Shown piece by piece: positions 18,388 to 42,779 of a stretch of 64,000 nucleotides of DNA. The position numbers were made by a program, and so were the translations under genes. Position 1 is the stretch's first letter; each line of letters starts with the position of its first letter. Under the pieces are notes generated by a model, which ran no database searches, had not been told where the DNA came from, and worked only from the letters and a program-made list of their open reading frames with translations. This DNA is from Laburnicola sp. R22_1 (lineage: Eukaryota; Ascomycota; Dothideomycetes; Pleosporales; Didymosphaeriaceae), in the NCBI GenBank assembly GCA_014281115.1, contig JACONQ010000004.1, positions 1,302,001-1,366,000 of the forward strand, given 5' to 3'.

Positions 18388-20507
18388 CCGTGCCTTGGCA
18401 GTCGGTGCGCCGCGTCACCAAAACGCGCCACCCCCCATGCAACACCCCAACTTCAACGCGCGGCATCTCCACCAATATGGACCCAATCGAGGCCGCGATA
18501 GCAGCAATCGAATCGCGGAGACCAGGAGAAACTTTTTCGTATAGAGAAATTGCGAAAAAGTTTGGTGTTGTACGATCTACTTTGACGCGCCGGCACCAAC
18601 GCGCTACATACGCGCAGCAAGATCCTCGCAGAAACCAACAAAATCTCAGCCAACAACAAAAGGAGCTCCTACAGTATATAAGACGCCTTACTGAGCGTGG
18701 TCTTCCTCCTACACGTTAAATGATACAAAACTTCGCGATATCTATTGCCAAAAAGGACGTCAGCATATCATGGGTTGATCGCTTTGTCAGGCGCAACAGC
18801 GAAGACTTGATATTAAGATGGACAACTGGAATCGATAGCAATCGCCACAACGCTGATTCAGGGGCAAAATATAGGCTCTACTTTGAGCTTCTACACGAGA
18901 AAATTACGAAGTATGGCGTAGAGCCTCAGCATACGTACAATATGGACGAAAAAGGCTTCCTACTTGGTATCACAGGCAGGTCAAAGAGGATCTTCGATAG
19001 GCCTCTATATGAGAGTCGCCAAGTGAGGCAATCTATCCAGGACGGCAGCCATGAGTGGATCTCGCTCATCGCATGTATATGCGCTAATGGATCTACTGTT
19101 AATCCATCACTAATCTATTAATCTGACGCTGAGACTCTACAATCAAGCTGGGTTAAGGAAATCAACGTCAACTCTCAGAGTCTTTATCACCTCATCAACC
19201 TCTGGATGGTTAAACAACAATATAGGCCTTTAATGGCTTAAACAGGTGTTTGATCGCTGTACAAAGGAGAAGGCTCAACGGCAATGGCGACTCCTAGTCT
19301 TTAATGGGCATGGATCTCACGTTACTATGGATTTTATCAACTACTGTGATCAGAACAAGATCCTCCTTGCGATATTTCCCCCTTATGCTACCCATACGCT
19401 GCAGCCTCTAGACGTCTGCGTGTTCAAGTCTCTCTCTGCCGCCTACTCCAACAAGCTCTCCGCATATCTATATAGGAGTCAGGGGCTATCAACAATCGCC
19501 AAAAGCGACTTCTTTACGCTATTCTGGAGGGCCTGGACGACATCAGTTACGCTGCAATTAATCACCAAAGCTTTTGAGTGTACAGGTATCTGGCCGCCAG
19601 ATCCTACGCCTATCCTCAGTCGATTTGACAGAGATAAGTCTCCAGAGCAGAGATCGCGCGAGAGCTCTACGTTAGTACTCAGCGCGTCAGATTGGCGCAA
19701 AATTGATCGGCTTTTAAAGGTTGTTATTAATACAGGGGGCACTAATGAGGCCAAGAAGCTGAGTCGCACTGTACACTCAATCTCTGTACAAAAGCAGCTC
19801 CTAGAGCATAAAAATTAAGGCCTACGAGAGACTCTCAAAAACCAGAAACAGCGTCAAATAAAGGGCAGGACTCTGCCTCTTAAGCAACCAGATGAGTGGC
19901 ATGGAGGAGCTGTTTTCTGGTCACCTGCCCGCGTACAGAGGGCGCGCGACTCTCTCAGCCAACAAGAGGCTGAAAAACAACAATTAGAACTCCAAAAAAG
20001 TCAGCAAAGAGAGATCCAGATAGCTAATAGGCAGCTTAAAGCTCGTCTACTACAGGAGAAGCGTGTTGCGCGGGCAGCAGCTCAAGATGCGCGCGCCAAG
20101 GAGAAGGCTGATCAGGCTACTGAGCGACGCCTCCGTCAACAGGCTCGTACGGCGCAACAACAACTTCAGAGACGTCTCAAATTAGCCAGAAAGGGCAATA
20201 CAAAGGCTTCTAAGTCTACTACTAGGCTTATTAAGAAGAAGAAGCCTGCGCCAGCACCTGTGCGCATTGATGAAGCTGCATCTGCTCCACCAACGCCCTC
20301 ATCGCGCAGAGGCCGAATTATCAGAACACCAAGTAGATATCTATAATCTGAGTAGCTAGCAATCATCTACAGACGTAGGAGACCTTAACCCCAAAAAATC
20401 TCGCGATAAAAGCTTTTGTATAGAGCTCTACAGCCTCATGTTGGGCGGCGCGCTCATGCTAGGGTGGCGCGTTTTGGTGACGCGGCGCACCGACTGCCAA
20501 GGCACGG
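18388..20507 (+). mobile_element. pogo/Fot1-type DNA transposon, copy 3 (little decayed)
   Basis: Inverted repeats of about 45 bp start CCGTGCCTTGGCAGTCGG and end with its reverse complement. The TA duplications are at 18386-18387 and 20508-20509. Full length at 2,120 bp. Only a handful of lesions affect the transposase, so it is one of the younger or less RIP-exposed elements here. Confidence 0.92.
18477..20346 (+). pseudogene. pogo/Fot1 transposase, copy 3
   Basis: Starts MDPIEAAIAAIESRRPGETF. Helix-turn-helix at FSYREIAKKFGVVRSTLTRR, second DNA-binding domain ending GLPPTR before a TAA at 18717, DDE core, then a long Gln/Lys/Arg-rich tail (EKRVARAAAQDARAKEKAD) ending TPSRYL. Lesions: GAA-to-TAA at 18717, a CAA-to-TAA after NPSLIY near 19121, a one-base frameshift near 19170, a TAA in GLxWLKQVF, and a TAA after LLEHKN near 19818. 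The second catalytic aspartate is changed to Asn (LVFNGHGSH) in a TTTGAT-to-TTTAAT context, the TpG-to-TpA change typical of RIP. First (YNMDEKGF) and third (QPLDVCVF) aspartates remain. Confidence 0.88.
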
Positions 20508-24029: not shown

Positions 24030-24345
24030 TATTTTTATTTAAATAAACATTTTACTTATAGAAACATTTTATTTATATAAACATTTTAACGTTATTTATA
24101 TAAACATTTTATTTTCATAAACATTTTATTTATATAAACATTTTATTTATATAAACATTTTATTCATATAAACATTTTATTTATATTAACATTTTATTTA
24201 TATAAACATTTTATTTACATAAATATTTTATTTATATAAACATTTTATTTATATAAACATTTTATTTACATAAATATTTTATTTACATAAACATTTTATT
24301 TATATAAACATTTTATTTACATAAATATTTTATTTATAAAAAGTT
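24030..24345. repeat. 17-bp AT-rich minisatellite
   Basis: About eighteen imperfect head-to-tail copies of ATAAACATTTTATTTAT. Variants change one or two bases (for example ATAAATATTTTATTTAC). There are no spacers, so it is a tandem repeat and not a CRISPR-type array. Confidence 0.9.
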
Positions 24346-25124
<779 letters not shown>

Positions 25125-25356
25125 TTAATAGAGACCCCACTCAATATTCACATACGTGCCAGCTGTTATTCCAGAGCAAGACATAACGCCCTTCGCACTA
25201 ACCTAACTATTACTAGCAAAACGCTTAATGAATTTGTTAATAACATTAATAACGTCTTAGCCTCCCACCTTAAACTACACCGCGCCGCTAGTGCCGCCAG
25301 TGCGCTTGATGCCAAACGCGCACAAGCCAAACTTAAGAATCTCGTGGTGGCCTATA
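25125..25356 (-). pseudogene. chitinase part 4: C-terminus
   Basis: Continues from part 3 across the TA: GHHEILKFGLCAFGIKRTG, then FKVGG, a TAG-type loss of Q, DVINVINKFIKRF, and a final segment SCSGITAGTYVNIEWGLY before TAA at 25125-25127. The CAFG..K and VGGxDVIxxIN patterns and a C-terminal xWGLY are familiar from the ends of these chitinases. This confirms that the gene extends beyond all three insertions. Confidence 0.85.
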
Positions 25357-25464
25357 CTATGGCATCAGGCATAAGTAGTGTACATGGTCCGCGCACTGCA
25401 GGGATGTAACTTGGCAGGAGTCAGATAACGTAAGCCCGGTATTGTCTTGTTTTGTATAGAGTTT

Positions 25465-26513
25465 CTAGTACATTGTATGACCGCCTTGGGCGTCTAGGAC
25501 TGCCTGGCACCTGGCCGGCATACTGTCGATGAGCCCCCTCAGATCCTGTACTGTAATTGAGTCCCACGCTTCCCGTACAATCTGTCGTAGAGCGTCATAC
25601 GTAGGCTGTCTCCCACCTTCTTGATCAGGGTAATTCAGCTGTATATAGTCCTTCATCTTGTTCCAAACAGCCTCAATTGGGTTGAGGTCTGGCGAGTAGG
25701 GTGGCCAGTAGATGGGAGAGATGCCTCTCTCAAGAAGCTCATTGCGAGTATACGCAGCAGAGTGCCCTGGCGCCCCATTCTGCATGAATTTTAAAGTAGG
25801 ATTCATACGTAACCAGCCATCAACGATGGGCACAATGCGCTCACAGTAGCTCTCCTTATTAATACTCTTCCACTCCTTCTCCCAGAACAGGCAAGGACCC
25901 TTTGTAGAGCCTGAGAAGCAGCCCCAGAACATCCACCCAGCCTTCCTACGTACCTTTTCAACTATACAGGTATCATCAAGCTCCTCTCCAGGTCTCCTAG
26001 TAACCCAGACTTTGTTGTGCCTGCCGCCAGTGACCCAGGTTTCGTCACTCCAGAGGATGCTCCACCATTGCTCAGAGCTCCAGCAGAGGTGCTCCTCCGC
26101 CCACGCGACTCTAATCTGCCAATTTCTCTCAGTAAGAGGAGGCTTTGCACGGGCGACTCGACGTGTGTACCCTCTGCTGCGTAGAGCAGTCCGTATAGCG
26201 TATTGTGTGACTTCCCACTCCGCAAAAGGTCCCTCTGCAAGAGCCTGATAGCTCATCTGCCTGGCTGTACGAGAGGATTTGATATAGGCCTCAAGCTCAT
26301 CAACTTGGGCATTAGTGAGCTTGCGAGGGCGACTGGAGCGTTTCTTCGGCGTGACGCGGTTACTAGCGATTGCGTAGGCAACTTGTCTGCGTGAGAAACC
26401 AACAAGTTGGCAATAAAAGTCTGTGTATGACCTGCTAGGTGCAGGGTCTGCACCTGTAGACGCTCGTCGCGCGAGAGGTATCGATGGCGAGGTGGAGTTG
26501 ATGGTGTTGACAT
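25465..26513 (-). pseudogene. Tc1-family transposase, frameshifted and catalytic-site mutated
   Basis: Cut-and-paste transposase. The true N-terminus is in another frame: ATG at 26513, MSTPSTPPRHRYLSRDERLQ then LHLAGHT, which shifts near 26430 into the main frame (QLVGFSRRQVAYAIASNRVT, an HTH, then PKKRSSRPRKLT). Core motifs: LWSDETWVTGG (first Asp), KFMQNGAPGHSA (second position Asn where QDGAPGH is usual) and YSPDLNPIEAVW (Glu). So both a frameshift and an Asp-to-Asn change disable it. C-terminus CQAVLDAQGGHTMY. The open frame extends upstream to 26601 only by chance. Confidence 0.88.
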
Positions 26514-26587
26514 TGTGTGGATGGGGAGAGGATGACGCGAGGGTGGCAGCGACGACAAAGGTACACGTGTTTTGGTACAAAACTATA

Positions 26588-27283
26588 CTGTGTCCGTGCA
26601 CTCAACGCCCGGATTCAGTCAACGCCCGCCTTTTACTAGGAAAATCAAAGAAAATAAGCAACTTCACAGCTATATAACTCTTTAGCTACTTTTTCTTTTT
26701 AAAAGCTTTCTTAATTAAAGTTATAGAGAAAGACTATCTCTATAACTCTAGAATTTTGGTTTTCTAATAATAATTAATTTTAAGAAAAAGTATAAAAGTA
26801 CTAAAACTTAAGTCTCTAAATTTAAAAATAAATTTTTTTAGAAGTAAAGTATGCTGTTTAGAATATAGTTTATATTAAGTTCTTTCTAATAAAACTATTA
26901 ACTAGAAAGTTATATTATCTTTTTATTTTTTTAAATAAAAAAATTAGGAAAGATAATCTATCTTCTTAAGTAGTCCTTTATAAAAAAAAGTCTTAATATA
27001 AACTATATTCTAAATAGCATACTTTACTTCTAAAAAAATTTATTTTTAAATTTAGAGACTTAAGTTTTAGTACTTTTATACTTTTTCTTAAAATTAATTA
27101 TTATTAGAAAACCAAAATTCTAGAGTTATAGAGATAGTCTTTCTCTATAACTTTAATTAAGAAAGCTTTTAAAAAGAAAAAGTAGCTAAAGAGTTATATA
27201 GCTGTGAAGTTGCTTATTTTCTTTGATTTTCCTAGTAAAAGGCGGGCGTTGACTGAATCCGGGCGTTGAGTGCACGGACACAG
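26588..27283. mobile_element. 696-bp foldback element with pogo copy-2 ends
   Basis: Two near-perfect inverted arms of about 290 bp (26588-26880 and 26990-27283) flank a spacer of about 110 bp. TA duplications lie at 26586-26587 and 27284-27285. The outermost bases (CTGTGTCCGTGCACTCAACG) are the same as the inverted repeats of pogo copy 2 at 4236-6348. No coding capacity. Inference: a non-autonomous derivative mobilised by a pogo transposase of that type; it landed inside the Tc1 element beyond the transposase start. Confidence 0.9.
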
Positions 27284-27397
27284 TAGGTAATTAGATGTAT
27301 TTTTGTTAGTAGAGAGGCTATGAGTCATCGCGTGATTATCTTGGCAGTGCCCCTGCAGTGCGCGGACCATGTACACTACTTATGCCTGATGCCATAG

Positions 27398-27552
27398 TAA
27401 TGCGGTGCTCCCATTTGGTTAAGGCGTCCTCCTTAATATTCTAGATAATCTGCTTGCAGTTGTTAACAAGGGGCGACGCGCCGCTGCCTTAGTTCTTAAA
27501 CAACAAGTCGCCGCAGTGGTCCTTGCTAGGGAAGATGTCGCAGGGGTAGTAG
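27398..27552 (-). pseudogene. chitinase part 3
   Basis: In frame with part 2 across the hAT duplication: DYYPCDIFPSKDHCGDLLF, a TAA, then SPLVNNCKQII, a TAG, and EDALTKWEHRIT, ending at the TA target of the Tc1-type element. Only about 50 codons long; without joining it would look like intergenic DNA. Confidence 0.85.
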
Positions 27553-30500
27553 CAGGGTTGTCAACAACCAAACATGCCTCAATATTTTGTTTGAATTTTG
27601 TTTGAATTGACAACGTCAACCAAACAAAAAGCTGCTGCTGCAATTTTGATAGGTCAAACAAACAAAAGAGGCAATTGCAGTCAAAAAATTTGAAGTTTGT
27701 TTGAATCGCTTAGCATACTGTAATGATAAGGTACCCTAGAGTTAGTGATATATTCTTAGTGTTGATGTAACAATAACTTTCCTAACGCTGCAATTATATA
27801 GGTATTCCTATAGTAAACAGAGCAAAAACGGAGCTTCTTAAGTGGATTGTACCTGCGTAAAAAAGCCCGCATAACGGATGTGTGCTTCCACTGGCCGCCA
27901 GCAACTGATATACATGAATTGCTATTCGGCTTTAGCACCTCCTATCCTCTGTTCCTCCTCTTTCTTTACGTAGGTAATAAGCTGTTAAAACAATAAATAT
28001 ATATATAATAATCTAAATAAGCTAATATTATAGTGTTGAGGTATTGTAGCAAAGTGAGTTTGCGCTGTTGCAGCGAAGCCTAAGTTATGTTTATATATTC
28101 TGAACCTAGTTACTACTCTTAAAAAATCGTTTGCTATAACCACGCAATAAATCTTGTCTTCTATAAGTTAAACTATTAAATCAATGTTGCTAAATTAATT
28201 CCTGTCGCCTGTTTTACTATATCTCTATTGTTGCGGGCTGCAGAGCGTCGCGCAGTACGCCTTGGCATGAAGTGGTAATGTTGGCTAGCCGACCGCGTAC
28301 TTTCCGCGTACCTTGCGCGTCAACGCTTACACACCCACTATACTTTGGCTTACTTGCCTGCGCCTACAGCTTACTTTTTCGCGCCTTTGCTTACCTTCAC
28401 ACTTACTATGCCCCCAAAACGAAGCCGCGAGCCTGCTGAGGCATCCGAACCTATGCCCAAACGTTCCCAACGTGCGCCGAAACCCAGCCAGCGCCTTATA
28501 GATAGCCAGCGGCCGCTTACTCCTCCGCCAACCCAGCCGTCTATTGAGGTAGTTGACGAGCCGGAGCCGCCTATTGAGGTGCTTGAAAGTACTCTAGAGC
28601 CGCGCTTAATAGAGCCACCAACCGAGCTAGAGGAGCGCGCCCGGAGGCCATCACCACGGCCTATACTACAAGCCTTACAGGCCGATGAGCTAGCTTGGGA
28701 GTTGCTGTTAGTGGCTAATAAGCCGCCTATAGCTACTAAGCCGCCGCGCGCGTTTAGTAATGCTGCCACAGAGGCTTCAGTAGAGGAGGACGCTGCGCCT
28801 AGTGTTGACTTCACCAACTACGAAGGCCTTGACTTGAAGCGCCTGCTAGGCTTCAATGTGCCTCTATCCACACCCACAGGCAACATCAGCTAGGTCTTTA
28901 GGCACGGCTATCGCCTTCGAAAGCTTGGTACTAACCCTAAGAAGATCTACTTCCAATGCAAGCACTGTCACATTAACAGAAAGAAGGGCGGCCTACACCA
29001 GACCACTCTGTCAACTACAGCCGCCAACAACCATTTGAAGCAAGACCTTCCCGGCCATCGGCTCACCAAACAAGGCACTATCGTACACAAGAGGCCGCTC
29101 GAACCTGGCCAGAAGTCGCTGCGATGGGCGGAAGAAAACGGGGTCACATTAAGCCAAGATGCAACGCAGGAGCTGGGTAACTTCGACGTACAAGGCTTCA
29201 GGCAAGCTGCAGTGTTATGGCTCGTCAACAACAACAGGCCATTACGCGAGTTTGAGACTGAGTCCTTCCGCGCGATGATCAGGTTCGCCAACCCAGAGGC
29301 AGAGGCGGCGCTATGGAGGTCTCACAACAGCGTTTCGAGGTTCGTGATGAGGCTTTACAGCTGGCTACAACCTTAAGTCAAGCGCGCCTTGTCTAAGGCC
29401 TCTAGCAAAATACACATAAGCTTTGACAGCTGGACTACTAAGGGGGGGAAGCGCGGCTTCTTTGCAATTTGTGCGCACTACGCTGACTCTCAAGGCAATA
29501 TAGTTGACCTTCCCATCGCCTTGCCGCAGCTGGTTGGTGCGCACACAGGCTCAGCGATCGCGGAAGCTGTCGTACGAATCCTACGCTACTTTGAGATTTC
29601 TAGCAGCAATTTGGGCTATTTCGTGCTTAACAACGCCTACAACAACAATACTGCAGTTAATAAACTCGGCACAATGTACGGCTTTATCGCCAACGATCGA
29701 CGCCTCCGCTGCGCTTGCCACATACTCAACCTCGTTGGGCAAACTATTATGTTTGGCACTGACTCCAACGCCTTTGATAACGAGCCTAAACACTACAACA
29801 AAGAGGAGTTTTATATAAAGCAATGGCGGAAAGATGGTCCGCTTAGCGTGTTTCTTGATATTGTTAACTACATTAACACGCCAAAACAATGGGGTATATT
29901 TGAGGATTGTTAGAACAGCGAAGCAGTTGAGATGCCTGCTGGCGCTACAGCAAGACGCCGTAAGCCTTTCAAGCCTGGAGTTATGCGTTGGAACAGCTAT
30001 TATAACTGCTTTAAGCGCGGTGTTGAGCTACAACACACCATTAACAGCTACTCCTCCTACCACATACAAGAGACTGAGCACGCTGACGAGCTTGCCAAAA
30101 GCAACAACACTAAGCCGCCTATTGTGCCGCAGTGGATGCGATCAGGCGGGCTTGCAGCTGCAGACTGGGCGGTGATTACCGAGTACATTGAGGTGCTTGA
30201 GCCGCTGAAGTCCGCAACTAATCGCTTGCAAGGTCGCGGCAAAGCTGGCACTTATGGCGCGTTATACGAGGTTATCCCTGTGTTTGAGTCTCTTATTGCT
30301 GACCTAGATGCCCGCCTTAGACTGTTTGAAAGCGTCAATTACCTGCCAGACGAGGCGCCAGAAGATCACGTCGCTATCAACGTACGTGCTGCGCTCAAGA
30401 AGGCGAGCAAGTACCTTAATAAACTCCTCAAAATCCCCGTCTACTACACTGCCACGGCACTCCACCCACGCTTCAAGAACTACTTTAAACGCTTCTGGCG

Positions 30501-31223
30501 TGAGAAGCCCGCACAGTTACAAGCTACGCACGCGAGCTTCGAGCAGCTTTGGGCTCGTTACAAGCCCGCCCTAGCGACAGCAACAACAATAACAACTGCG
30601 CCTAAACACGCGATGAGCAGCTTTGACGACGCAATCGATTCGGTACTTGACAACAGCGACGAGATAATAGGGGTGGCGGATGAGTACGAGAGCTGGCTTA
30701 GAGAGCCAACATGGACATCAGAACAGTACAAAACTGGCTGTACAGCTGTCCAATACTGGTACCAGCTCAAGCCGAGGTATCCCAATTTGTCACGATTGGC
30801 GCTGGACGTGTTAACTATCCCTGCCTCCAGCGCTGACTGTGAGCGAGTCTTCTCGGGTACTGGCGACGTACTTGAGCCACAGAGACGCAAAATGGGCAGC
30901 CAACTATTGGCTGCTTTAATTTGTACTCAACGATGGATTCGAGCAGGTTTTAAACCTCCAAGCGCAAAGGTGGTGGCAACGTACGATGACAATAAGCTCA
31001 ACGAACAGTTTAGCATACATGAGTGGGAGGAGCCGCCGCCTATAACACCACCAGAGTCTCTTTCACAGTCCTCTTAAAGTACTCAAAATCAAACAAACAA
31101 TCAAATAAAAAGCGCCTCTATAGCTCCATCAAATCAAACAAACAAACTACAACACCAAGAAAGTCGTCAAACAAACAAATTCAGAGCCACAAATTTTGTT
31201 TGTTTTGTTTATTGACAAGTCTG
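27553..31223 (+). mobile_element. hAT DNA transposon, copy 1 (lightly decayed)
   Basis: Ends CAGGGTTGTCAA at left and its imperfect inverse (TTGACAAGTCTG) at right, with an exact 8-bp target duplication GGTAGTAG at 27545-27552 and 31224-31231. Subterminal regions are dense with CAAACAAA/TTTGTTTG strings, which could be transposase binding sites. It carries a single plus-strand transposase frame and is inserted in the chitinase gene. Confidence 0.92.
28408..31077 (+). pseudogene. hAT transposase, copy 1 (three nonsense codons)
   Basis: A 890-codon frame from ATG at 28408 (MPPKRSREPAEASEPMPKR), interrupted only by TAG at 28891, TAA at 29374 and TAG at 29911, each explainable by CAG/CAA change. 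Order: Pro/Glu-rich N-terminus; BED-type zinc finger (YFQCKHCHINRKKGG.. NHLKQDLPGH); RNase H-like core with ISFDSWTTKGGKRGFFA, FVLNNAYNNNTAV and RCACHILNLVGQT; C-terminal hAT dimerisation domain (RLALDVLTIPASSADCERVF, then RRKMG). The second Asp, expected in VLDNA, is Asn in the context CTTGAC-to-CTTAAC. Introns are excluded because the frame is preserved around each stop and no splice sites fit. Confidence 0.9.
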
Positions 31224-32543
31224 GGTAGTAGTCAGACCCGCCTTTAGTGCCTGTGTACCAGGCCTACCACGCGCGGCTAGGGCTGCACACAGGCAGCTAG
31301 ATAAGGCCCAGTGTTATAGTGTTAAGGCCGACTAGCTTCTTGCGGACGTTCTTCTCATTGGCCATTTTAGTGATGTTGATAATCTTGTTCTCCCCGCCGT
31401 TATAGCCGTACGTGGCCAGGGCGCCCTTAACAATATCGTCCCTTGTTAGCTTGCCAAAGTCGTTGTCCATAAGAGAGCTAATGCCCTTGAGCGCGGAGAA
31501 CTTGTTGTCCTAACAGACAGTCTGACAGGGGCTGGTATTAGTGTCTCTCTCGCACTTGCACTCTTTGGCGTCACCCTTGGGCGCGACTAGGTAGTACATC
31601 CTGTTATTAACACAGACCAAAGTGGCCTTAGTAGTGTTGTTGTTAACATACTTGCTCGCTGGGTTGCCGCTGCAGCTATTTTCTAAGTTGAGAATAAACG
31701 CGTACTGCTTAGACTAGCGCCACAGGCTAGGGATAGCGTAGGCAAAGAATGTCTTACGGGCTGTCGCCTTGATGTCTATCGCCCCCTTACTACTGCTGAT
31801 ATCGCCGCCTGGACTAGGCAGCATTCTGCTGTCCTTAATAATGGAGGTTAGAGCGTCGAGCGAGGCACGCTCGCCATCAAAGAGTTTCTTAAGGGACAGG
31901 GTAGTGCTGTTCATCTAGCCAAAGACGGCCTGCGCGGCGTAGTTGGAAAAGTCCTTTTGCTCATCCGGGGTCCATTTGTCTACCAGAGGAGCCTGAAGCA
32001 GATCCTTTGCCAGCGTCGTGCCCTGGCCTATCATGTTCAGCGCCGTGTCCTTGGTGTTGTCGAACAGGGTGCTGCCTTCTTTGGCAAAGGTGGGAAGAGT
32101 TTTTAAGACGCTATTAAAGAAGGGCGCTGCGGCGCCAAGAGCCCCGATGGTTAGGAAATTGATCATGACGTTTAACCACTAGTTAGTTTTGGGCTTAGGA
32201 ATTGGCGCAAAGACATTTTCCATTTGTCTAATAGTAGTCTGGACGCCTCCTCTCATGTCGCTGAGACCATTGTAGTAGGTGTGGAACATACGATGGACCT
32301 TGATGAGGGACTGCCAGATAACGTAGGCCACCGGTCCGGAATCGGGGCCGTTGGCGCCGTCTGGGCATTCCCATCGGTCATCGCAGAAATCGTGAGTACC
32401 TCCAAGAAACTCGCAGCCCATATCGCCGCCAGCGAGGAGAGTCTGCTCCACCAATTCCATGAAGGTGAGCCGGCCCTCGTCGGTTCCGATCCACTTGACG
32501 ATAATCTCGTGCCATGCAGAAGCGGCGTCGAGCTCCTTCCAAC
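31224..32543 (-). pseudogene. chitinase part 2: C-terminal region
   Basis: Continues directly from part 1 with ELDAASAWHEIIVKWIG and holds EQTLLAGGDMGCEFLGG and PVAYVIWQSLIKVHRMF, segments usual in the C-terminal half of this chitinase class. About 437 codons with stops near 32179, 31915 and 31714, plus more downstream (for example after TITLGLI). The distal end reads GTKGGSDYYP, where hAT copy 1 is inserted. The 8-bp duplications at 32536-32543 and 31224-31231 are the edges. Confidence 0.88.
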
Positions 32544-32689
32544 CAGAGTTGTCAACAATCAAACAAAGTCAAATTTAAAGCTCAAATTTTGCTTGTTTGA
32601 CGATTTCTTAGTGTTGTAGTCTTATTTGATTGCTTTGACAAGGCTGTAGAGGCGGTTTTGTTTGACTTGTTTGTTTGAATTTGAGCAAT

Positions 32690-35375
32690 TTAAGAAGCCT
32701 TAAAAGGCGCTTTCTATAGTGTTATAGGCGGCGGCTCCTCCTAACTTTTTATGCCAAATTCTTCTGCAAGCTTGTTGTTGTTGTACATAGCCGCTGCCTT
32801 TGCGCTTGGAGGCTTAAAACCTGCTTAAATCCACTGTTGTGTACACACTAAAGCAGCTAATAGCTGGCTGCCTATTTTGCGCCTCTGTGGCTTAAGTATA
32901 TCGCTAGTGCCTGTAAACACCCGCTCACAATTAGCGCTAGAGGTAGGGATAGTTAACACATCTAGCGCTAATTATAAAAGATTTAGGTACTTTAGTTTTA
33001 GTTGTTGCTAATATTGTATAGCTATAAGCCCCTGTTTGTGTTGTAGAGCCGTCCACATAGGCTCTTTAACCTAGCTCTTATACTTATCCTCTGCCTCTAT
33101 TGCCACGTTGTTGTTGTTAAGTATTGAGTTAATTGCTTTGTTAAAGCTGCTTATTATAGGCTTTGGGAATAGTGTTATTATTGTAGCGGCTACGTGGGCG
33201 GGCTTATAGCGAGCCTAAAGCTGCTTGAATTTTGCGTGTGCGGCGCTAAGTTATGTAGGTTTACTACGCTAGAAGCGCTTGCAATAGGACTTATATTATA
33301 AGTGCAAAATTGTGGTAGTGTAATAGATAGAACTTTTAAGCAACTTGTTAAAGTAGGCGCTCGCTTTACGCCTTGCGGCGTATAGGTTAATAGGCAGGTA
33401 ATCCTTAGGCGCCTTAAATAGCTCGTAGTTAACATTTTTATACGCCTGAAGGCGAGTATCTAGCTTAGTAATCAGAGACTTAAATATAGGTATAATCTTA
33501 TATAAGGTGCTGTGGGTGCCAGCTTTGCTATAACCTTATAAGCGATTAGTTACAAACTTAAGCGGCTAAAGTACTATAATATACTTTGTAATTACTGCCT
33601 AGTCTATAGCTATAAGCCTACCTAATTATATCTATTGCAGCGCATTAGATAGCTTCTTATTATATAGTTTTGTCTGTTTGTTAGTATTCTCTATCTCTTT
33701 AATATAGTATAAGGCATATAAGTTAATAGCTTATTATAGCTTAACACCGCGCTTAAAGTAGTTATAATAGCTGTTCTAACGCGTAATAACCGGCTTAATT
33801 AGCTTGCGGAGACTACCTATAACGCCTATAGGCATCTTACTAGCAGCATTGCGCTAATAGTTACTAAAGATACTCTATTGCTTTGGCGTATTAATATAGC
33901 TAATAATATTAAGAAACACACTAAGTAGACTATCTCTCCGCTACTTCTATATATAAAAATCTTCTTCTTTTATATATTTAGCGGCGTTATTGTACGCCTT
34001 AGAGTCTCTGCCAAATATAATAGTTTGGCTAATAAGGTTAAGTATGTGGCAAGCGCAGCGAAGGCGTTTATTAGTAGCGCTAAAGCTGTATATTATACTG
34101 AGTTTATTAATAGTAGTATTATTATTATAGGCGTTATTAAGCACAAAGTAGTCGAGTTTATTACTATTAATTTTAAAGTATTATAAGATTTATATAATAG
34201 TGTTAGCTATTGCCTTGCTAGTATGTACGCTAACTAGCTGCGGCAACGCAATAAGAAGATTAACTATATTACCTTAAGCGTTAGCGTAGTATATAATAAT
34301 AGTAAAGAAGCCATATTTACCGCCTTTAGTTGTCTAACTATTAAAGCTCACGTGTATCTTGCTGCTTGCCTTAGATAACGCGCGCTTAACCTAAGGCTAT
34401 AGCTAGCTATAGAGCCTTATTATAAAAGCCAACACACTATTGTAAGACTTCTATAGCGCTGCCTCTACCTCTAGATTAGCGAACCTTATTATTGCGTGGA
34501 AGAACTTAGTCTTAAACTTGCGCAAAGGTCTATTGTTGTTAACTAGCCATAGCACTGCAGCCTACTAAAAATCTTATACGTTAAAGTTACCTAGCTCCTA
34601 ATAGACCTCTTGGCTAAGTATAAGACCTTTATTAAGCGTTATCTATATAGATTGTTGGCTAGGTTTGCGCTCTGTTTAGTATATAATAGGGCTATTCTTA
34701 CTAAGTCTATGGCCGCGCTAGTTACTAGCGAGGTGTAAGATAGCGTCGCTAGTTACAAGAGTAACCTAGTATAAGCCGCCTTTTTACTTATTAATATGGT
34801 AGTACCTATATAGGAAGTAGAGCTTTTTAGACTTAGTGTGCTCCTTCTAAATCCGCTAGCTATACCTATACACCTAGCTAGAAGTGCCTTAAGGCATAGT
34901 AAGAGGTAGCGCAAAGCCCTTTAATCGCGGCTAGTTAACACTATTAAAGTTAGTAAAGTTAATAGGCGGCGCAGCGTCTTCCTCTACTAAAGCCTTTGTG
35001 GCAGCACTGCTAAAAGCGCGCGATTAAATAGTGGCTATAGGCGACTTATTAGCCACTAACTACGACTCCTAGACTGGCTTATTAGTGGGTTAAAAGGCCT
35101 ATAAGACTTAGAGTATAGGCTGTAGTAATGCCCGCTAAGCGCGCTTCTCTAGCTAAATTGGCGGCTCTATAGACAGCTTTAGCATACTTTTTAGCAGCTC
35201 TATAGGCTCTATAGGCGATTCCAGCGCGTGTTTAGGCACCTTAATAGGCGACTCTGTTGGCTAGGTTAGCTAGGTGTTGTCGCCTTCACGCTTCTTATAT
35301 ATGGGCTTGGGCGTGCGATGGGGGCGTTTAGGGGGGTTGCCGGCTTCTTTAGCAACCTTAAGGCTACGTTTAGGG
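32690..35375 (-). pseudogene. hAT transposase, copy 2 (heavily RIP-mutated)
   Basis: Collinear with copy 1 on the minus strand. The best preserved part is MLNNAYNNNTTINKL followed by LRCACHILNLISQTIIF (33947-34144). The BED finger (YFLYRYYHIN) has lost its cysteines, and the dimerisation segment, the tail EEPPPITL and the N-terminus (KRPHRTPKP) are recognisable. The start codon corresponding to copy 1 reads ATA. Dozens of TAG/TAA codons. The second Asp is Asn, as in copy 1. Confidence 0.85.
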
Positions 35376-35543
35376 GCTATGGTAAGCGTAAAGGTAAGCA
35401 AAGGCGCGAGAAAATAAGCTATTAACAAGAAATAGTAAGCTAAAGTATAGGGTTAGGTAGTTATTAACGCGTTATAGGACGCGTTGTAGTATATAGAAAG
35501 TACGCGATAGCTGCCTTACTAAGCTAGCTATAACACTACTATA

Positions 35544-37644
35544 TTTCCCCGCTTAACGCATAGACCCTACTTAATGCACAGTTAGCACTAAAAATCTCTA
35601 TACTTTTAACCCTTATAACTCTACTAATATGGACCCAATTAACGTAGCTATTAACGCTTTGAGATTCCTAAAGCTAGGAGAACGTCCTAATATATCTTAG
35701 ATTGCGCGAGAGTATAGCGTTAAGCAATCGCGGCTCTTAAAGCGTTTTCGCGAGGTGCAGAGCACCTATGCGTCCCAGATAAAAGAAAAGCGACTCCTTA
35801 ACTCTATATAGGAAAAATAGCTACTATAGTATATTAAAAAGCTGTGTACATAAGGCCTACCTTCTATAAGAGAGATAATATAAAATTTCGCAGCAGAAAT
35901 AGCCTATTAAGAGCTAGGAAAACACTGGGTTAATCGCTATATTGCGCGGCATTAAATTAACCTTATATTGCAATAGATATCTAGTATTAATAACCAGCGC
36001 CACAAAGCTAATTTAGTCTTTAAATACGCTCTCTATTTTAAGCTTTTAGACGATAAGATTAAGCAGTATAACATCGCGCCATTAAATACATATAATATGG
36101 ATAAGAAGGGCTTCTTAATTAGGGTAGTGTTAAGAATAAAGCGCGTATTCTCCCGACGCTAGTATAATTAGGGTAGCGTTAAGTAGGTACTTTAGAATAG
36201 TAATAGGGAGTAAATTACAACGATAGCTTATATATACACTAATATATATTAGGCAGCTTCTGGCAATATTTAGGACACCTAGTTGCAGAATTTTAATCCT
36301 TAAGAGTACCGCGCCTTCTTCGCCTTATCACCTTTAGGATGGACAAACAACGAACTTGGCATTGCCTGGCTTAAGAGGTGCTTTTAGGAGGAGACTAAGA
36401 CAAAGGCAAAACGCGACTATAGGCTCCTTATTCTTAATAGGCATAGCTCGCATATTATAATAGAGTTTATTAAGTTCTGCGATTAAAATAGAATCCTTCT
36501 AGCTATCTATCCGCCGCATTTAACTTATACGCTACAGTCTCTAGATGTCTGCCTTTTTAAGCCTCTCTTAGCTGCATATACTAAAGAGCTCTCCTAATTT
36601 ATATATAACAGCTAGGGCCTTATATCTATTACTAAGCGCGACTTCTTTCGCTTCTTCTATAGGGCGTATAGGACCGCGTTTGCTAAGGAAACAATTATTA
36701 ACTCATTTAGAGTTACTGGCATCTCTCCACTAGATAGCAACGCTATATTAAAGAAATTTAAGGATCTAGAGCCTAAGAGGCCATTAAGCAGTAATAGTAC
36801 GTCTTTAGTACTCTCTGCAAGCGACTGGCGCAAGATTAAACAGCTCCTACAACAGGTAGTTAATAATATCTACAATAAACGCGCCTTATAGCTCTCTCAC
36901 ATAATACATGTAATTACGACTTAAAAACAGCTCCTTTAGCATGAAAACAACCGCCTTAAAGACGCCCTTATTAATGAGAAGAAGCGCCGTACGCGTGGCA
37001 AGGCATTACTACTTAAACCTTCCTAGAATTACGCTGGTGGCGCTGTCTTCTGGTCGCTATCTAAAGTTGAAGCTGCCCGCAATCAACAAGTCCAAAAAGA
37101 CGCCAAAGTAGAAGAACTACAACACTAGAAGGATCGCAATAAGCTAGCTAGGGAGCAGAAAAAGCAGGAAAAATAGGCTATGCTTTAGCAAAGAGCAGAA
37201 ATAAGGATGGCTGCAAAGGAGATTAAATTGCAGGAAAAACAGCAAAAGGCTGCAGAGCGCAAAGAAGCCCTACTCGCCCACGCAGCTAAAAAGCAACTCC
37301 AGAATGATATACAATTAGCTAAAAAGGGTAAGGCGCGTAGCCTCACAGCTCCTGCACCTCCTACTTATATTATTGAGGACCTAGAGGCTGATGCTAAGGA
37401 TCTATCCGTCATTAAAGGGGTGGTAGAGGCATCTGGCCCATCAACGCGCACGCGTACAGTACGCCTCCCACAGAGGTATCGCACCTAATATATCGTTGCC
37501 AATCGATTAAAACGACTTTTAAGAATGCTACTACAAAAATCTCGTGATAATTTGATCTATATAGAGCTGTACAGCTTTAAAAGTAGTAGTAGTGGGCATC
37601 CTCAAACTGTGCGTTGAGTGGGGTCTGTGCGTTGAGCGGGGAAA
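35544..37644 (+). mobile_element. pogo/Fot1-type DNA transposon, copy 4, nested in hAT copy 2
   Basis: Inverted repeats TTTCCCCGCTTAACGCA (left) and the inverse of TTTCCCCGCTCAACGCA (right); the left end has RIP-type C-to-T changes. The left flank is TA (35542-35543); the right flank reads CA, so one base of the duplication has changed. It belongs to a different pogo subfamily from copies 1-3 by its ends. Confidence 0.85.
35629..37488 (+). pseudogene. pogo/Fot1 transposase, copy 4
   Basis: A 620-codon frame from ATG (MDPINVAINALRFLKLGERP) to the stop after TVRLPQRYRT, with no net frameshift but many TAG/TAA codons. Core motifs: TYNMDKKGFLI (first Asp present), LLILNRHSSH (second Asp changed to Asn), TLQSLDVCLF (third Asp present). 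The last 90 codons (MAAKEIKLQEKQQKAAERKE onward) are open and form a charged coiled coil like the tails of copies 2 and 3. Confidence 0.86.
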
Positions 37645-37887
37645 CATGGTAAGAAATCCATTATTAGCTGCTATTACACCTATCCCAACAACCTTACCTC
37701 TATAGCAGCTGCAACACTATAGGTATGTTAAGCGAGTCAATCAAGATCAAATTATCTTGACAAAAATTTACAGATTTGATTGTTTAGCTTATTAAAATAG
37801 CAGCGGAGACTCTTGTTTGGTTGAATTTGACCAAGTCAAACAAGATCAATCAAAATTTTGACGCATGCTTGATTACTGACAACTCTG

Positions 37888-40653
37888 CTTCCAACGTACA
37901 TCGGGATCATAATTGTACTGGTACTTGACATATTCGGACTCACAAGAGCCCTCTCGCCACTTGCCTAACTTGACAGTGCTCACCTTGGGATCACCGCCCG
38001 CGCGCGCAAGGGAGATGAAAAAACTCCAGTCCTTGGCCGGCTTGGGAGGATCGTGAAACTCTTGCAAATCGCTGGCCCAGTCCGTCGTGCCGGCCATTCC
38101 GAGGCTGGCGTACAGCTTCGTGCGGACGGCCTTTGTGCTCTCGCTCATGTAGCCGACCCACTGGTTGTTGTCGTAGACGAGGATGTCGCTGTTGCTGCTC
38201 GTGTCCAGAAACTGCGTCGTGACGCGGCTGTTCTGACGCTTGCCGCTGGCACCGCCGCGGATGATCTCATTGATCTCGGCGTCGGCGATGTAGCCTCCAG
38301 TGTCGGTACACCTGCCCGGCGTGGCGTACGAGGTTAGCCTGTCGCTGGTGAATTTGCAGTTGGGACCCTAACAGCCCGCTTTGGCCATTTGGAACGAGCG
38401 CCTATAGCTGGTGACACCGACGACAATCTTGTTGCTGGGAACGCCAGCCTTGGTGATCATGGCGAGCGATTGTCGGGTCTTAGTAAGATTGACTTGGCTG
38501 CGAAGACAGTTGCCGGATTCACAGTACTCCTGAGAGTACTCATTGTGCGCATCCCACTGGCCGTGAAGATCGTACGTCATGTAAATGATATAGTCGACTA
38601 CCTTGCTGATCTTTTCGATTGGAAACTGTTTCAGGTACCAGTACGATGCAGGGGCAGCGATGGCAACTGTCTTGCCGGGAAGCAGATTTTTAAGGACGGC
38701 AAGGAAAGCGAGGTAGTTAGGCCCATCTTCCTCCAAACCAGGGTCCGACATATTAGGAAGATCTGGTGCGCTAGGGTACTCCTAGTTGATGTCCACACCA
38801 TTAAGCTCTTGCTTAATAATAAAGTTAGTAATACTCTTCGCGGCCTTTACACAGTGAGCAGGCGTGACAGCCTCGCGGAAGATCCGGTACGTAGCATCGT
38901 CGTTGGAGAAAGCCCAGCCGCTGAAGGAAAGGATCCTCTTGGGCCCTTAGATGCGTGTGAACTCTTGAAACTGGTACGTGGCGAGCGTGTCGCTAACTGC
39001 GACCTCAAATTTTGGAGCCGGGGTTAGCGTGCCGAAACCAAAGTGAAGGTGAGTGTACTTCGACGCGTTAATCTGGAGGGCGTCCTAGTATAGGCACTTG
39101 CGGCCCATACTGTAGCCCTAGAAGTAGGCGAGCTTAATGCCACTGTTGCCAGTTCCCTTAATGATATCAACACCGCAGTTGGAGATACAGCCATAGGTGC
39201 CCTTCTTAGCAGTGCTAGGAGGGCCAGTATTAGTGTCAATACAAAAGTCCCTATTAACTCCGCACTGACCCCAGATGTTGCAGCATACGTTAAGGGGACA
39301 CAGGTTCATGTCAGCAATATTGGAGCCATCAGTGGGAGGCTTAGATCCTGGCTTCTAAGGGCCGCACTTGGCGTTATTAATAGCGTTGGGGAAGGGAGGA
39401 TCTCCCTCGCTAAGACACAAAACGACCTTGGCGAAGAGAGGTTCGCAACTAGAGAATCCCTATGTCTTTTTATTAAAACCCTTAAGCTCCTTTTAGGTCA
39501 GACTGTACTCGGCGGCGAGGTTGTCGCAGTTGTCGTCATCCTAAACAGTATACAAAAAGCACTTGCCGTCGACTAGCTTGGGCCGCCTATTAGGCAGGGT
39601 ACCGCTGGAGCAGCAAACCCACATCTTGGGCTTGACATTGTTACACTTAAGATCTGGGTTGTACTTTGTAAAGTCGCTAGCTAAGATTCCACACATGACC
39701 GCCAGCTCTAGGCAGCTGGTGCCAGACTAGGCCTGGACCAACCTGCACTCGGCACGCTCCTAGAGGACATTTGCATCTCCACAACAAGGGACATAACAAA
39801 GGACATGGGAGTAGGCTCTTGCAGATCTAGCCCTTGTGGTAGAGTTGCTTCCTGTTATAGAGTTGGCCAAGCGGCCATCAATTACAGAAGCGGTATAGGT
39901 GACTGTGCCAGCAAAGTCTTGCGACCCGCTAAAAGACAGGCACTTGGCATTAGCCTAAGATCGGATCGCGTTCTGGATGGGAGCGAAGGTGGCATTGCTA
40001 GTGACGACGACGCCGAAGATGTGAGTGCTGATAGACTTGTTATCGCACAGCTGCATGGCCAAGCTGGGCGAGGTGACATTGAGGTTATCAAAGTTGTCCT
40101 CAAACATTTGCAGGGCGGACTCGCTGAGGCCCTGGCGCCGCAGGCCCTGGCCGATGTAGACGCTAATGCTGGCTTGACCAGCGCGTCCGTAGAGTATGAA
40201 CGGTCTGTCCGTGGTGTTGGCATGGCCCTTGTCAATATATTCTCGCATTTGCTTAGCAAGAGCAGTGATCCTGGCTACAGCGAGGCTGAAAGCCTCTTCG
40301 AACTAGCCGAGCTCAAACTTGACTTGGGCAGGCCTAGCCACTTTAGCACTAGAGGAGATCCTGGCCATGGCTGGTGTGGCCTCCATGTTGTTAAAGTCTG
40401 AGCCAAAGGATGTACAAGCGGCAATGCGATGGCTGGAACCTCTGTTGTCGACAGAGTTGTACAGGTTGAAGCCATAGAATACGGTCTCTTTGCACCTCTT
40501 AATGAGGTTGAGATTGGGATAGACTGACCACTTGCCGGTATCAGGGCCAGCGTCTAAGCATCGGCCGGGACAAAAGTCCTAAGTCTGAACCAAGCCTGGC
40601 AGGACGGTCACCACGGCGGCAAGCGCCACCGCAAGCCGTGGTAGTGTCACCAT
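37888..40653 (-). pseudogene. chitinase part 1: signal peptide to GH18
   Basis: Starts MVTLPRLAVALAAVVTVLPG, a clear signal peptide (residues 1-24), then a TAG. Next come an N-terminal domain (CPGRCLDAGPDTGKWSVYPN), two LysM-like segments (about residues 305-410, for example YNPDLKCNNVKPKMWVCC and DNCDNLAAEYSLT), and a CBM18 chitin-binding motif (LCPLNVCCNIWGQCG, about 430-475). The GH18 domain begins near 495 (THLHFGFGTL). The catalytic DGxDxDWE signature reads N-G-V-D-I-N-stop-E at about residues 618-625 (38779-38800): two Asp-to-Asn changes and TGG-to-TAG at 38782-38784, with the catalytic Glu still present. YIIYMTYDLHGQWD is well preserved. The part ends at codon boundary RWK, where hAT copy 2 is inserted. 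Confidence 0.9.
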
Positions 40654-41472
40654 GATGCTATTGGAAGAACACTAAACAGAACGTTAGCAAATGCAAATTG
40701 TAAAGAGGTGGGGCGAGGGTAAAGCCATACCTGGATATTAAGTTGACTATAAACGGATATGAATAAATGAATGAATATGGATCGGAAAGACACCTGATGG
40801 CTAATCAGCAACTAATCGTCGCTTGCTGCTGCTGCTGGTGGACTACGTCTGATATTTACAGAGCGCGACGGACGCCATTTATTAACCTTAATCTGATGTT
40901 TAATTGCCAGTATTTAGTGGAGAGGTATGGCGAAGGAACTGTGCCACAGGAAGACGGACTTGCTAAAAAGACGTCTTGGCGCAAAATTAACATCTGCACA
41001 TCTAATAAGCTGTGCCTCATGGCCGCCTAAGTGGTGGGGTCGCTTTATTGTTATACGGCTCGCATAATAAGTCCTGGTTCGCGGGATTTGATTGTGAAGA
41101 TGCCTCGGCTATAAGGAAGCAACTTTATAGAGTATTAGGGTCCTTGACAAAGTTCGGTAACATTTTGCCAAGAAGCAGCATCGCGTGATGCAGGCGACAG
41201 TTCTATAACTTAACAAGAAGATGTATGTACATGTAAGCTAACATAAGTGATTAAATGACAAAAAGACTGTGCAGTTTGAAGTATTTCAGCCAAGTACAAG
41301 ATATTAAAACCCCTGCCTGCATCTCTTTACCCTCACAAATAAGCCGGCCTTATGCAGGGGAGAATTATGAGATGGTGCCGTCACTGCCGTGCCGTACGTA
41401 AAGAATGTAATCCAATGGGGGCTTGTTACTTTGCCAAGACGAACAGACGCGAGTCGGCGCATATAGGCCCAA
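40654..41472. other. intergenic between chitinase and DUF7136-like gene
   Basis: Holds the 5' flank of the chitinase and the 3' flank of the upstream gene, both on the minus strand. The frame at 40767-41030 has no domain and unusual Cys/Trp composition (VACCCCWWTT), so it is not called. Confidence 0.5.
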
Positions 41473-42276
41473 TCAAGCGAGGAAAAGAGCAGCACCGAAA
41501 ACCGCGGCGAGGGTAGAAACTCCTGCAACAGCAAATCTGGGATTGGCGAGACCGCCCTTCGGACACTCGCTCGGCTGGTTCAGACCCCTGCACTTCTCCT
41601 TGAGGTCAACGGCGGCCATACTCTCGACTGTAGCCTTGTCGATCTCGACTTTGCAGGGGTTCGAGATTGGTGTGGGGGACGAAGAGCCCAGAACCGCACA
41701 GGTCTCATGTGCCGAGGATCCGGTCGCAGCCTCGAGTGTCTTGTCAGTCACGTCGATGCCCACTCCCGCGTTCGGGCAGTTCTCGCTATTGCCGTTGTTA
41801 GTGGCGGCCACGAGGTCCGCCTTTTCGCCACTCGCTCTGATCTCAAAGTCGACCAAGAAGTTGTCTGTGTAGTTGCGCGCCAGGCCGACCTCTGTGTGGC
41901 TCTGGTCGCACGACGTCCAGCTCGGCTGCCAGAGGACGCGAAGCTTGCTCTCGCCTCCAACCTTGAAACGGGTCCACAAAAGATAGGGGTTGTGCTCTGA
42001 GGCGCTGGTCCAGTTGAACTCGTGGGCGCTGTCAATGAGTAGTTCGACATCCCCGGTCAAGTTGAGGACCTGGTACAAGATGAAGGGCTTGAGATGCTCA
42101 GCCAGCTTGGGGTTCTGGACGGCGAATACAATAGGGAAGTCATCTGCGGGCGAATACGTGGCGTTGGTACGGGGGAAAGCCAGACCGATATCCAGGACAC
42201 CGGCGGCTCTGGCGACGGCGCCGAAGTAGCCAGAGGCACCTACGAGGGCCCATATGGACTGGGAAGCCAGGCGCAT
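41473..42276 (-). CDS. secreted, probably GPI-anchored DUF7136-like protein (intact)
   Basis: 267 residues. The start is set at the ATG at 42276 because it begins a good signal peptide (MRLASQSIWALVGASGYFG..ARA); an upstream in-frame extension to 42450 is Gln-rich (LKGLQQQQQQRQQ) and would bury it. The mature part begins VLDIGLAFPRTNATYSPADD and has FPIVFAVQNPKLAEHLKPF, a pattern of the fungal DUF7136 family, several N-glycosylation sequons (NAT, NLT, NWT, NYT) and about six cysteines. The C-terminus NPRFAVAGVSTLAAVFGAAL is hydrophobic, as in a GPI signal. No stop or frame lesion. Function unknown; a cell-surface or wall role is inference. It is the only clearly intact host gene in the window, sitting upstream of the dead chitinase. 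Confidence 0.82.
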   Translation of the reverse strand: MRLASQSIWALVGASGYFGAVARAAGVLDIGLAFPRTNATYSPADDFPIVFAVQNPKLAEHLKPFILYQVLNLTGDVELLIDSAHEFNWTSASEHNPYLLWTRFKVGGESKLRVLWQPSWTSCDQSHTEVGLARNYTDNFLVDFEIRASGEKADLVAATNNGNSENCPNAGVGIDVTDKTLEAATGSSAHETCAVLGSSSPTPISNPCKVEIDKATVESMAAVDLKEKCRGLNQPSECPKGGLANPRFAVAGVSTLAAVFGAALFLA

Positions 42277-42779
42277 GGCGGAAAGCGGACCACGGGCTTT
42301 GTTTGCGTTTGTGATTAGCCTTACTAACAATATAATTAATAACTGTCTAACTACTATTTGCTGCCTCTGCTGCTGTTGCTGCTGCAGTCCTTTTAGGGAT
42401 AACCTTGCTAGGACGCTATTAGCAAGAATAGGTGTAAAATTGGGCGACAAACACGCGGCACAGCTTTAAGTTGAAATCACAGCGCTTAGTGTCTCGGCCG
42501 GGGCGGACCGCCTGGCTGTCTTGGCGCGCTTGGCGCGCGGCAATGTGCCGAGAGCCGTTCCCCTTGCAGGAGGCGGATGCAGCCTAGAATGAGTCCGCCG
42601 GGTGGCGTACCGCGTTCTGGGCCAGCGGTATCAGATCTGGTGCTGTTGATTAAGCTCGGCTATATAGATTCCGCGCACATAGGGTTTCCGCGCATCCCAC
42701 CCAAACACGCACCCCTCAGAAAACACGCGATATCTCCTAACGCTCTATTACAATTGCCACGTAGTATACATAGACTGTA
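42277..42779. other. upstream flank of DUF7136-like gene
   Basis: No gene. Contains CTGCTGTTGCTGCTGCTG-type triplets near 42365-42390 that create the Gln-rich upstream extension on the minus strand. The plus frame at 42577-42780 has no recognisable domain. Confidence 0.45.

What the first reader, a model, noticed from the sequence alone, without database searches (positions are those of the whole stretch)
25125..40653. One chitinase gene scattered over 15.5 kb by three independent transposon insertions
The minus-strand LysM/CBM18/GH18 chitinase is cut by hAT copy 2 (TSD CTTCCAAC), hAT copy 1 (TSD GGTAGTAG) and a Tc1-type element (TSD TA). Taking each duplication once, the four parts add to 4,455 bases, an exact multiple of three, and the protein reads through each join. 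The two 3' fragments, about 50 and 77 codons, would be missed by ordinary annotation. Three hits in one gene suggest a dead gene acting as a transposon sink, or an open-chromatin target.
Basis: partly seen in the sequence, partly recalled or inferred. Interest (0 to 1): 0.88.

Follow-up and report, generated by a model that had tools for sequence, protein, structure and literature searches.

The report
RIP-killed chitinase, partner gene spared
A fungal chitinase gene that jumping genes have split into four pieces also carries many stop codons that look like the work of the fungus's own defence against duplicated DNA, as do its three sister copies, while the small gene beside each copy stayed intact.

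Summary
The geometry is real. Four minus-strand pieces lie between a Tc1-type element (TSD TA) and two hAT elements (TSDs GGTAGTAG, CTTCCAAC). Read apart, they tile an intact 1,484-aa relative end to end. But the frame is not open: it holds 25 premature stops, 21 TAG and 4 TAA.

The genome, an unnamed Pleosporales fungus, has three further copies. None has these inserts; all have stops (14, 78, 61). In piece 1 the copies differ by 96-99% transitions, mostly at CpA and CpG: repeat-induced point mutation (RIP). The gene probably died as a duplicate, and the two least-mutated inserts probably came later. A transposon sink is not supported: the copies carry 3, 0, 0 and 2 inserts.

The surprise lies outside the given coordinates. 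A DUF7136 gene precedes each copy and is open in 4 of 4. In the heavily mutated copies B and C, RIP begins only 99 and 186 bp past it; in B, 8 of 159 CpA sites are hit in that half against 517 of 715 elsewhere. Why is unproven.

The 3' pieces carry an Hce2 effector domain, so the window's pieces were never joined.

The parts
37888..40653 (-). Chitinase piece 1 (922 codons; GH18, CBM18-like and LysM-like parts), 14 premature stops
32544..37887 (-). hAT element 2 (composite), TSD CTTCCAAC, heavily RIP-mutated; inverted relative to hAT1
35539..37650 (+). pogo-type element nested in hAT2 (edges from alignment breaks, approximate); present at the same point in a second hAT2 copy on C23, absent in five others with both sides listed
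31224..32543 (-). Chitinase piece 2 (437 codons scanned), 6 premature stops
27553..31223 (+). hAT element 1, TSD GGTAGTAG; 39 other near full-length copies at 97-99% listed; Dimer_Tnp_hAT domain
27398..27552 (-). Chitinase piece 3 (48 codons scanned), first part of an Hce2 domain, 2 premature stops
25357..27397 (-). Tc1-type element, TSD TA, 49-nt arms identical (TA included), open transposase frame 25465-26601 with HTH_Tnp_Tc3_2 and DDE_3
26588..27283 (.). Foldback (MITE-like) element nested in the Tc1 element, TA on both sides; 24 further copies at 99-100% listed
25125..25356 (-). Chitinase piece 4 (75 codons scanned), second part of the Hce2 domain, 3 premature stops, then the terminal TAA
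41473..42276 (-). DUF7136 gene (267 aa), open; open also in the other three copies of the unit
25062..42651 (.). Extent in the window (inserts included) of the duplicated unit shared with copies A, B and C; B and C share still more on both sides

Best explanation
A unit made of a DUF7136 gene and, 0.8 kb downstream on the same strand, a subgroup C-type chitinase with a C-terminal Hce2 domain was duplicated to four copies. RIP then mutated the chitinase part of every copy and killed all four (shown: the mutation pattern; inferred: that it was RIP and that duplication triggered it). In the window copy a hAT composite, a second hAT and a Tc1-type element then or meanwhile inserted into the dead reading frame; the order hAT2, then hAT1, then Tc1 is inferred from their RIP load. 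The DUF7136 part of the unit was hardly mutated and its gene is open in all four copies (shown). The likeliest reason is that lineages whose RIP tract ran into DUF7136 were lost because that gene was still needed (inferred, about as likely as not); the alternative is that RIP acted when only the chitinase part was duplicated.
For: Three exact TSDs. End-to-end tiling of the pieces on intact relatives. 25 premature stops, 21 TAG and 4 TAA, no TGA. Piece 1, six of six copy pairs: 162 of 169, 590 of 602, 459 of 467, 619 of 632, 502 of 507 and 337 of 351 differences are transitions. In B against A 307 of 399 CpA and 214 of 350 CpG sites are changed against 62 of 392 CpC and 25 of 371 CpT; in the window copy 52 of 399, 48 of 350, 2 of 392 and 1 of 371. 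DUF7136 half: B 8 of 159 CpA hit against 517 of 715 in the rest, C 10 of 159 against 372 of 715, W 10 of 159 against 104 of 715; hits private to B 4 of 159 against 180 of 715. hAT1 against L042: 33 differences, all transitions, 30 of them C-to-T in the window copy, 22 CpA and 8 CpG.
Against: In piece 2 fewer differences are transitions (126 of 157 for W-A and 155 of 194 for A-C), so the copies were not identical at duplication or were mixed by recombination. In the window copy CpG is hit as often as CpA, so another process may contribute. Synonymous CpA sites of DUF7136 are spared as much as the others (1 of 54 against 3 of 56 in B; 2 of 54 against 2 of 56 in C) and so is the non-coding DNA before it (B 3 of 48, C 5 of 50, W 7 of 50): selection on codons one by one does not explain this, only loss of whole tracts would. 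dN/dS between DUF7136 copies is 0.50-1.04, weak evidence for constraint. Hits private to C (5 of 159 against 50 of 715, p 0.07) do not show the sparing clearly, and hits private to W go the other way (7 of 159 against 6 of 715), although few sites in the rest were left unhit by B or C. B and C share more hits than independence gives (225 against 198 expected), so they are not fully independent. The boundary was fitted on the same data. RIP density is no clock, and RID was not identified among the four PF00145 loci.
Confidence: 0.83

Rival explanations
1. The insertions killed the gene first and RIP then leaked from the inserted, repeated transposons into the gene pieces.
For: Leakage of RIP from repeats into neighbouring single-copy effector genes is described in Leptosphaeria maculans (PMC2973834, passages). 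hAT2 is heavily mutated (306 C-to-T changes in about 3 kb against L048).
Against: Copies A and B have no inserts in the gene yet carry 14 and 78 stops. In B the CpA hit rate is flat along the 4.4 kb (69-100% per bin in piece 1), not a gradient. The Tc1 element between pieces 3 and 4 is nearly clean while its two flanks hold five premature stops in 123 codons.
Confidence: 0.08
2. The spared DUF7136 half merely marks where the RIP target ended: the chitinase part was duplicated and mutated first, and the whole unit was copied afterwards.
For: The non-coding DNA before DUF7136 and its synonymous sites are spared too. B and C share many hits.
Against: Hits private to B also avoid the DUF7136 half (4 of 159 against 180 of 715), so RIP after the B-C split met DUF7136 copies that are about 95-96% identical in coding sequence (40 differences in 266 codons for W-A, 33 in 290 for A-B) and still spared them. 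No chitinase-only copy of this type was found (only best candidates scored).
Confidence: 0.4
3. The duplicated unit is cargo of a Starship-like element with a DUF3435 recombinase.
For: A mutated PF11917 match lies in the window (56693-58010) and another about 12 kb from copy C.
Against: Nearest listed PF11917 matches are about 190 kb from copy A and about 490 kb from copy B; the genome has 88 matches, so two near ones are no surprise.
Confidence: 0.03
4. Dead or open-chromatin gene acting as a magnet for transposons.
For: Three inserts in 4.4 kb; copy C has two more of its own.
Against: Copies A and B have none; 3, 0, 0, 2 fits a Poisson mean of 1.25 (P of three or more 0.13). The hAT1 copy in copy C's insert sits inside another element.
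Confidence: 0.07

Closest known systems
Subgroup C (killer toxin-like) fungal chitinases with an Hce2 tail
   Same: About 1,480 aa, GH18 in the middle, LysM- and CBM18-like parts before it, Hce2 at the C terminus; 392 relatives, best 86%. Several relatives are named 'Killer toxin subunits alpha/beta' by their sources.
   Different: All four copies of this clade here are dead; CBM18 and LysM scores of the window copy fall below the curated cut-offs.
RIP-inactivated effector genes of Leptosphaeria maculans (AvrLm6)
   Same: CpA-to-TpA changes giving several premature stops in an effector gene within a transposon-rich region (PMC2973834, passages).
   Different: There the gene is single-copy and RIP is thought to leak from nearby repeats in a gradient; here the gene itself is duplicated, the mutation is even along it, and it stops short of the neighbouring gene.
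Chitinase and LysM-effector gene pairs (tac6/tal6) of Trichoderma
   Same: A secreted partner gene lies next to a subgroup C chitinase gene (PMC4392113, passages).
   Different: The partner here is DUF7136, not a LysM protein, and it outlives the chitinase.

Membership tests
Subgroup C chitinase | GH18 catalytic domain | tested here: met
   PF00704 E 1.3e-31 in piece 1 read with X at stops
Subgroup C chitinase | LysM (CBM50) and CBM18 modules | tested here: inconclusive
   Both found but below cut-off in the window copy (16.3 of 20.9 and 27.1 of 27.8 bits); in relative P0005 LysM passes and CBM18 does not
Subgroup C chitinase | Chitinase activity | not testable with these tools
   Gene carries 25 premature stops
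Hce2 protein | PF14856 domain over cut-off | tested here: met
   Split over pieces 3 (26.8 bits) and 4 (45.5 bits), cut-off 25; pieces scanned apart
RIP | Differences between repeat copies almost all C-to-T/G-to-A transitions | tested here: met
   96-99% transitions in piece 1 in six of six copy pairs; 80-93% in piece 2 in the five pairs counted
RIP | CpA preference | tested here: met
   77% of CpA against 16% of CpC and 7% of CpT in copy B piece 1; CpG 61%. In the window copy CpG equals CpA
RIP | Mutation in the sexual cycle by a RID-type methyltransferase | tested here: inconclusive
   PF00145 matches at four loci, RID not told apart from others
hAT transposon (hAT1, hAT2) | 8-bp TSD | tested here: met
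   Both elements; also 8-bp TSDs at hAT1 copies L042 and L043 but not seen for L044, and at the C23 copy of hAT2
hAT transposon (hAT1) | hAT dimerisation domain | tested here: met
   PF05699 E 1.5e-21
Tc1/mariner | TA TSD, inverted ends, HTH and DDE transposase | tested here: met
   TA and 49-nt arms; PF01498 and PF13358
Starship cargo | DUF3435 captain at the element's edge for each copy | tested here: not met
   None listed near copies A and B
Toxin-immunity pair (considered) | Partner protects against the chitinase | not testable with these tools
   Only linkage and survival of the gene are shown

The most novel reading that the evidence does not exclude
DUF7136 is a surface self-protection partner of killer-toxin-like Hce2 chitinases. 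The fungus has lost the costly weapon four times to RIP but must keep the shield, so RIP-bearing progeny survive only when the mutated tract stops before DUF7136. DUF7136 would then be the first chromosomal immunity-type partner recognised for these chitinases in filamentous fungi (to my knowledge; see searches).
Probability: 0.12. Interest if true: 0.82.

Novelty: new variant of a known kind. Interest (0 to 1): 0.5.

Why it matters
RIP is usually thought to hit all of a duplicated stretch. Here one 6.5-kb duplicated unit shows a sharp switch just past one gene: the effector-type chitinase is dead in four of four copies and its neighbour is open in four of four. If selection did this, RIP becomes a natural knock-out screen that tells which gene of a pair a fungus can lose. 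It also gives a testable function lead for DUF7136, a domain for which one passing mention was found in the paper library. The locus is also a clear example of a gene that no standard annotation would list and that was dismantled in layers.
Full report
What was checked. The window lies at C21:1302001-1366000 of an unnamed 63.9-Mb genome in 26 contigs. Its RPB2 is nearest, among named records, to Kalmusia sp. (89%), then Lentithecium, Paraphaeosphaeria, Trematosphaeria and others, so it is a fungus of Pleosporales; that these genera belong to Massarineae is recalled.

The three insertions. CTTCCAAC flanks 32544-37887, GGTAGTAG flanks 27553-31223 and TA flanks 25357-27397, each on both sides. 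hAT1 carries a hAT dimerisation domain and the Tc1-type element an open transposase with HTH_Tnp_Tc3_2 and DDE_3. hAT2 is an inverted relative of hAT1 (71-73% over 1,248 and 533 nt). Copies elsewhere show the elements whole: 39 other hAT1 rows, near full length at 97-99% (40 of 127 candidates scored) and 12 Tc1 copies at 99-100% plus one at 79% (40 of 346 scored).

Nested elements. All 13 other Tc1 copies lack the 696-nt foldback at 26588-27283, and 24 further copies of it at 99-100% are listed. hAT2 holds a pogo-type element at about 35539-37650. Five hAT2 relatives have both hAT2 sides abutting without it, while a copy on C23 has it at the same point and is flanked by ATCATGAC on both sides. 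So hAT2 and pogo appear to have moved as one, and the pogo element need not be a separate hit on this gene.

One chitinase. The pieces were read apart with X at stops and aligned apart to three intact relatives. They tile P0005 at 1-921, 922-1359, 1361-1408 and 1410-1484, and likewise P0006 and P0007. GH18 lies in piece 1; pieces 3 and 4 hold the two parts of an Hce2 domain, which Pfam calls 'Pathogen effector; putative necrosis-inducing factor'.

It is dead. 25 premature stops: 14 in 922 codons, 6 in 437, 2 in 48 and 3 in 75; 21 TAG, 4 TAA, no TGA.

Three sister copies. A is C13:130773-135215, B is C20:4274835-4279289 and C is C13:1395192-1413848. In single alignments P0005 19-1482 covers A, 1-1484 covers B and 399-1482 covers C, so none of the three carries the window's inserts. 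They have 14, 78 and 61 stops. C has two inserts of its own, one of about 200 nt and one of about 14 kb. A more distant relative on C22 (58% at best) shows no stop in six of seven matched stretches and may be alive.

Mutation pattern. In piece 1 (2,766 bp, no gaps) transitions make up 162 of 169, 590 of 602, 459 of 467, 619 of 632, 502 of 507 and 337 of 351 differences in the six pairs. With A as reference, B has lost the C at 307 of 399 CpA, 214 of 350 CpG, 62 of 392 CpC and 25 of 371 CpT sites; the window copy at 52 of 399, 48 of 350, 2 of 392 and 1 of 371. This is RIP by pattern; that RIP acts on duplicates in the sexual cycle is recalled knowledge. In piece 2 only 80-93% of differences are transitions in the five pairs counted. 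Transversions there group W with C and A with B at 20 of 48 varied sites, a grouping seen at 0 of 19 in piece 1. The copies are therefore mosaics, which points to recombination or gene conversion among them.

Order of events. C-to-T changes per kb: hAT2 about 102 against L048, piece 1 about 37 against A, hAT1 about 8 against L042, Tc1 about 4.5 against L038. Read as a rough order, hAT2 is oldest or most exposed, and hAT1 and Tc1 came after most of the gene's mutation. All 33 hAT1 differences from L042 are transitions, so RIP was still acting, or acted on a donor, after hAT1. RIP density is no clock; this order is inference.

The unit is larger than the gene. About 2.0 kb upstream is shared with A (91%), C (89%) and B (86%); B and C share 2.9 kb upstream and about 1.1 kb downstream. 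That stretch holds a DUF7136 gene (41473-42276, minus strand), 0.8 kb before the chitinase start. It is open from ATG to stop in 4 of 4 copies (267, 290, 294 and 291 aa). The genome search found five DUF7136 loci: these four and one on C22, 10.3 kb before the C22 chitinase.

RIP stops before DUF7136. A fitted change point lies at window 41374 for B and 41287 for C, 99 and 186 bp past the DUF7136 stop (log-likelihood gains 59.8 and 36.9; for W against A it is weak, 4.8, and placed elsewhere). CpA hits in the DUF7136 half against the rest: B 8 of 159 and 517 of 715, C 10 of 159 and 372 of 715, W 10 of 159 and 104 of 715. Hits private to B: 4 of 159 and 180 of 715. Hits private to C point the same way without being clear (5 of 159 and 50 of 715, p 0.07). 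Hits private to W go the other way (7 of 159 and 6 of 715), though in the rest few sites were left unhit by B or C. Synonymous sites are spared as much as the others, and so is the DNA before the gene. dN/dS is 0.50-1.04. B and C share more hits than chance (225 against 198 expected).

Reading. Selection for DUF7136 could give this if RIP tracts that enter the gene are lost as wholes. A RIP target that ended there could give it too; the private hits of B, and DUF7136 copies that are still about 95-96% identical in coding sequence, count against that but do not exclude it. I hold the two about equally likely. A self-protection role for DUF7136 against a killer-toxin-like chitinase is the boldest reading and is not tested; the predicted beta-sandwich says nothing about function.

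Literature. In passages of PMC2973834 RIP leaks from transposons into the single-copy AvrLm6 effector gene. Passages of PMC4392113 describe subgroup C chitinases, their likeness to yeast killer toxin alpha subunits, and the chitinase-LysM neighbour pair tac6/tal6. Passages of PMC10823647 describe RIP leakage in Cladosporium fulvum. The term DUF7136 or PF23584 was found in one paper of the library, which does not link it to chitinases in the passage seen. No description of RIP halting between a chitinase and DUF7136 was met, which is a limited search of open papers.

Verdict. The spared partner gene is the part worth following.

Noticed in passing
window 41473-42276; copies A, B, C: The window's DUF7136 protein is closer to that of Decorospora gaudefroyi (P0247, 91%, no gaps) than to the three other copies in its own genome (80-82%, with an insertion of about 24 residues).
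   Followed up: partly
window 31225-32535 and 37888-40653 against copies A-C: The copies are mosaics: transversions group W with C and A with B in piece 2 (20 of 48 varied sites) but not in piece 1 (0 of 19).
   Followed up: partly
window 56693-58010: Remains of a PF11917 (DUF3435) tyrosine recombinase with many stops; 88 matches in the genome.
   Followed up: partly
window 59817-63457: Copia-type pol frames (Pol_BBD, gag_pre-integrs, rve weakly) with long open frames, in contrast to the mutated surroundings; the copia name rests on my reading of the 889-aa frame.
   Followed up: no
window 3300-4112 and 19246-19818: Two pogo-type (DDE_1) transposase frames.
   Followed up: no
window 24033-24376 and 24790-24970: A 17-nt tandem array (19.8 copies) and an (ATA)60 run just downstream of the chitinase.
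   Followed up: no
P0285 (Thyridium curvatum): A DUF7136 gene model that ends in a fragment matching this chitinase (59% to P0007 1187-1319): perhaps another case of a broken chitinase beside DUF7136.
   Followed up: partly
L031, C13:1405923-1409594: A hAT1 copy inside the 14-kb insert of chitinase copy C, nested in another element.
   Followed up: partly
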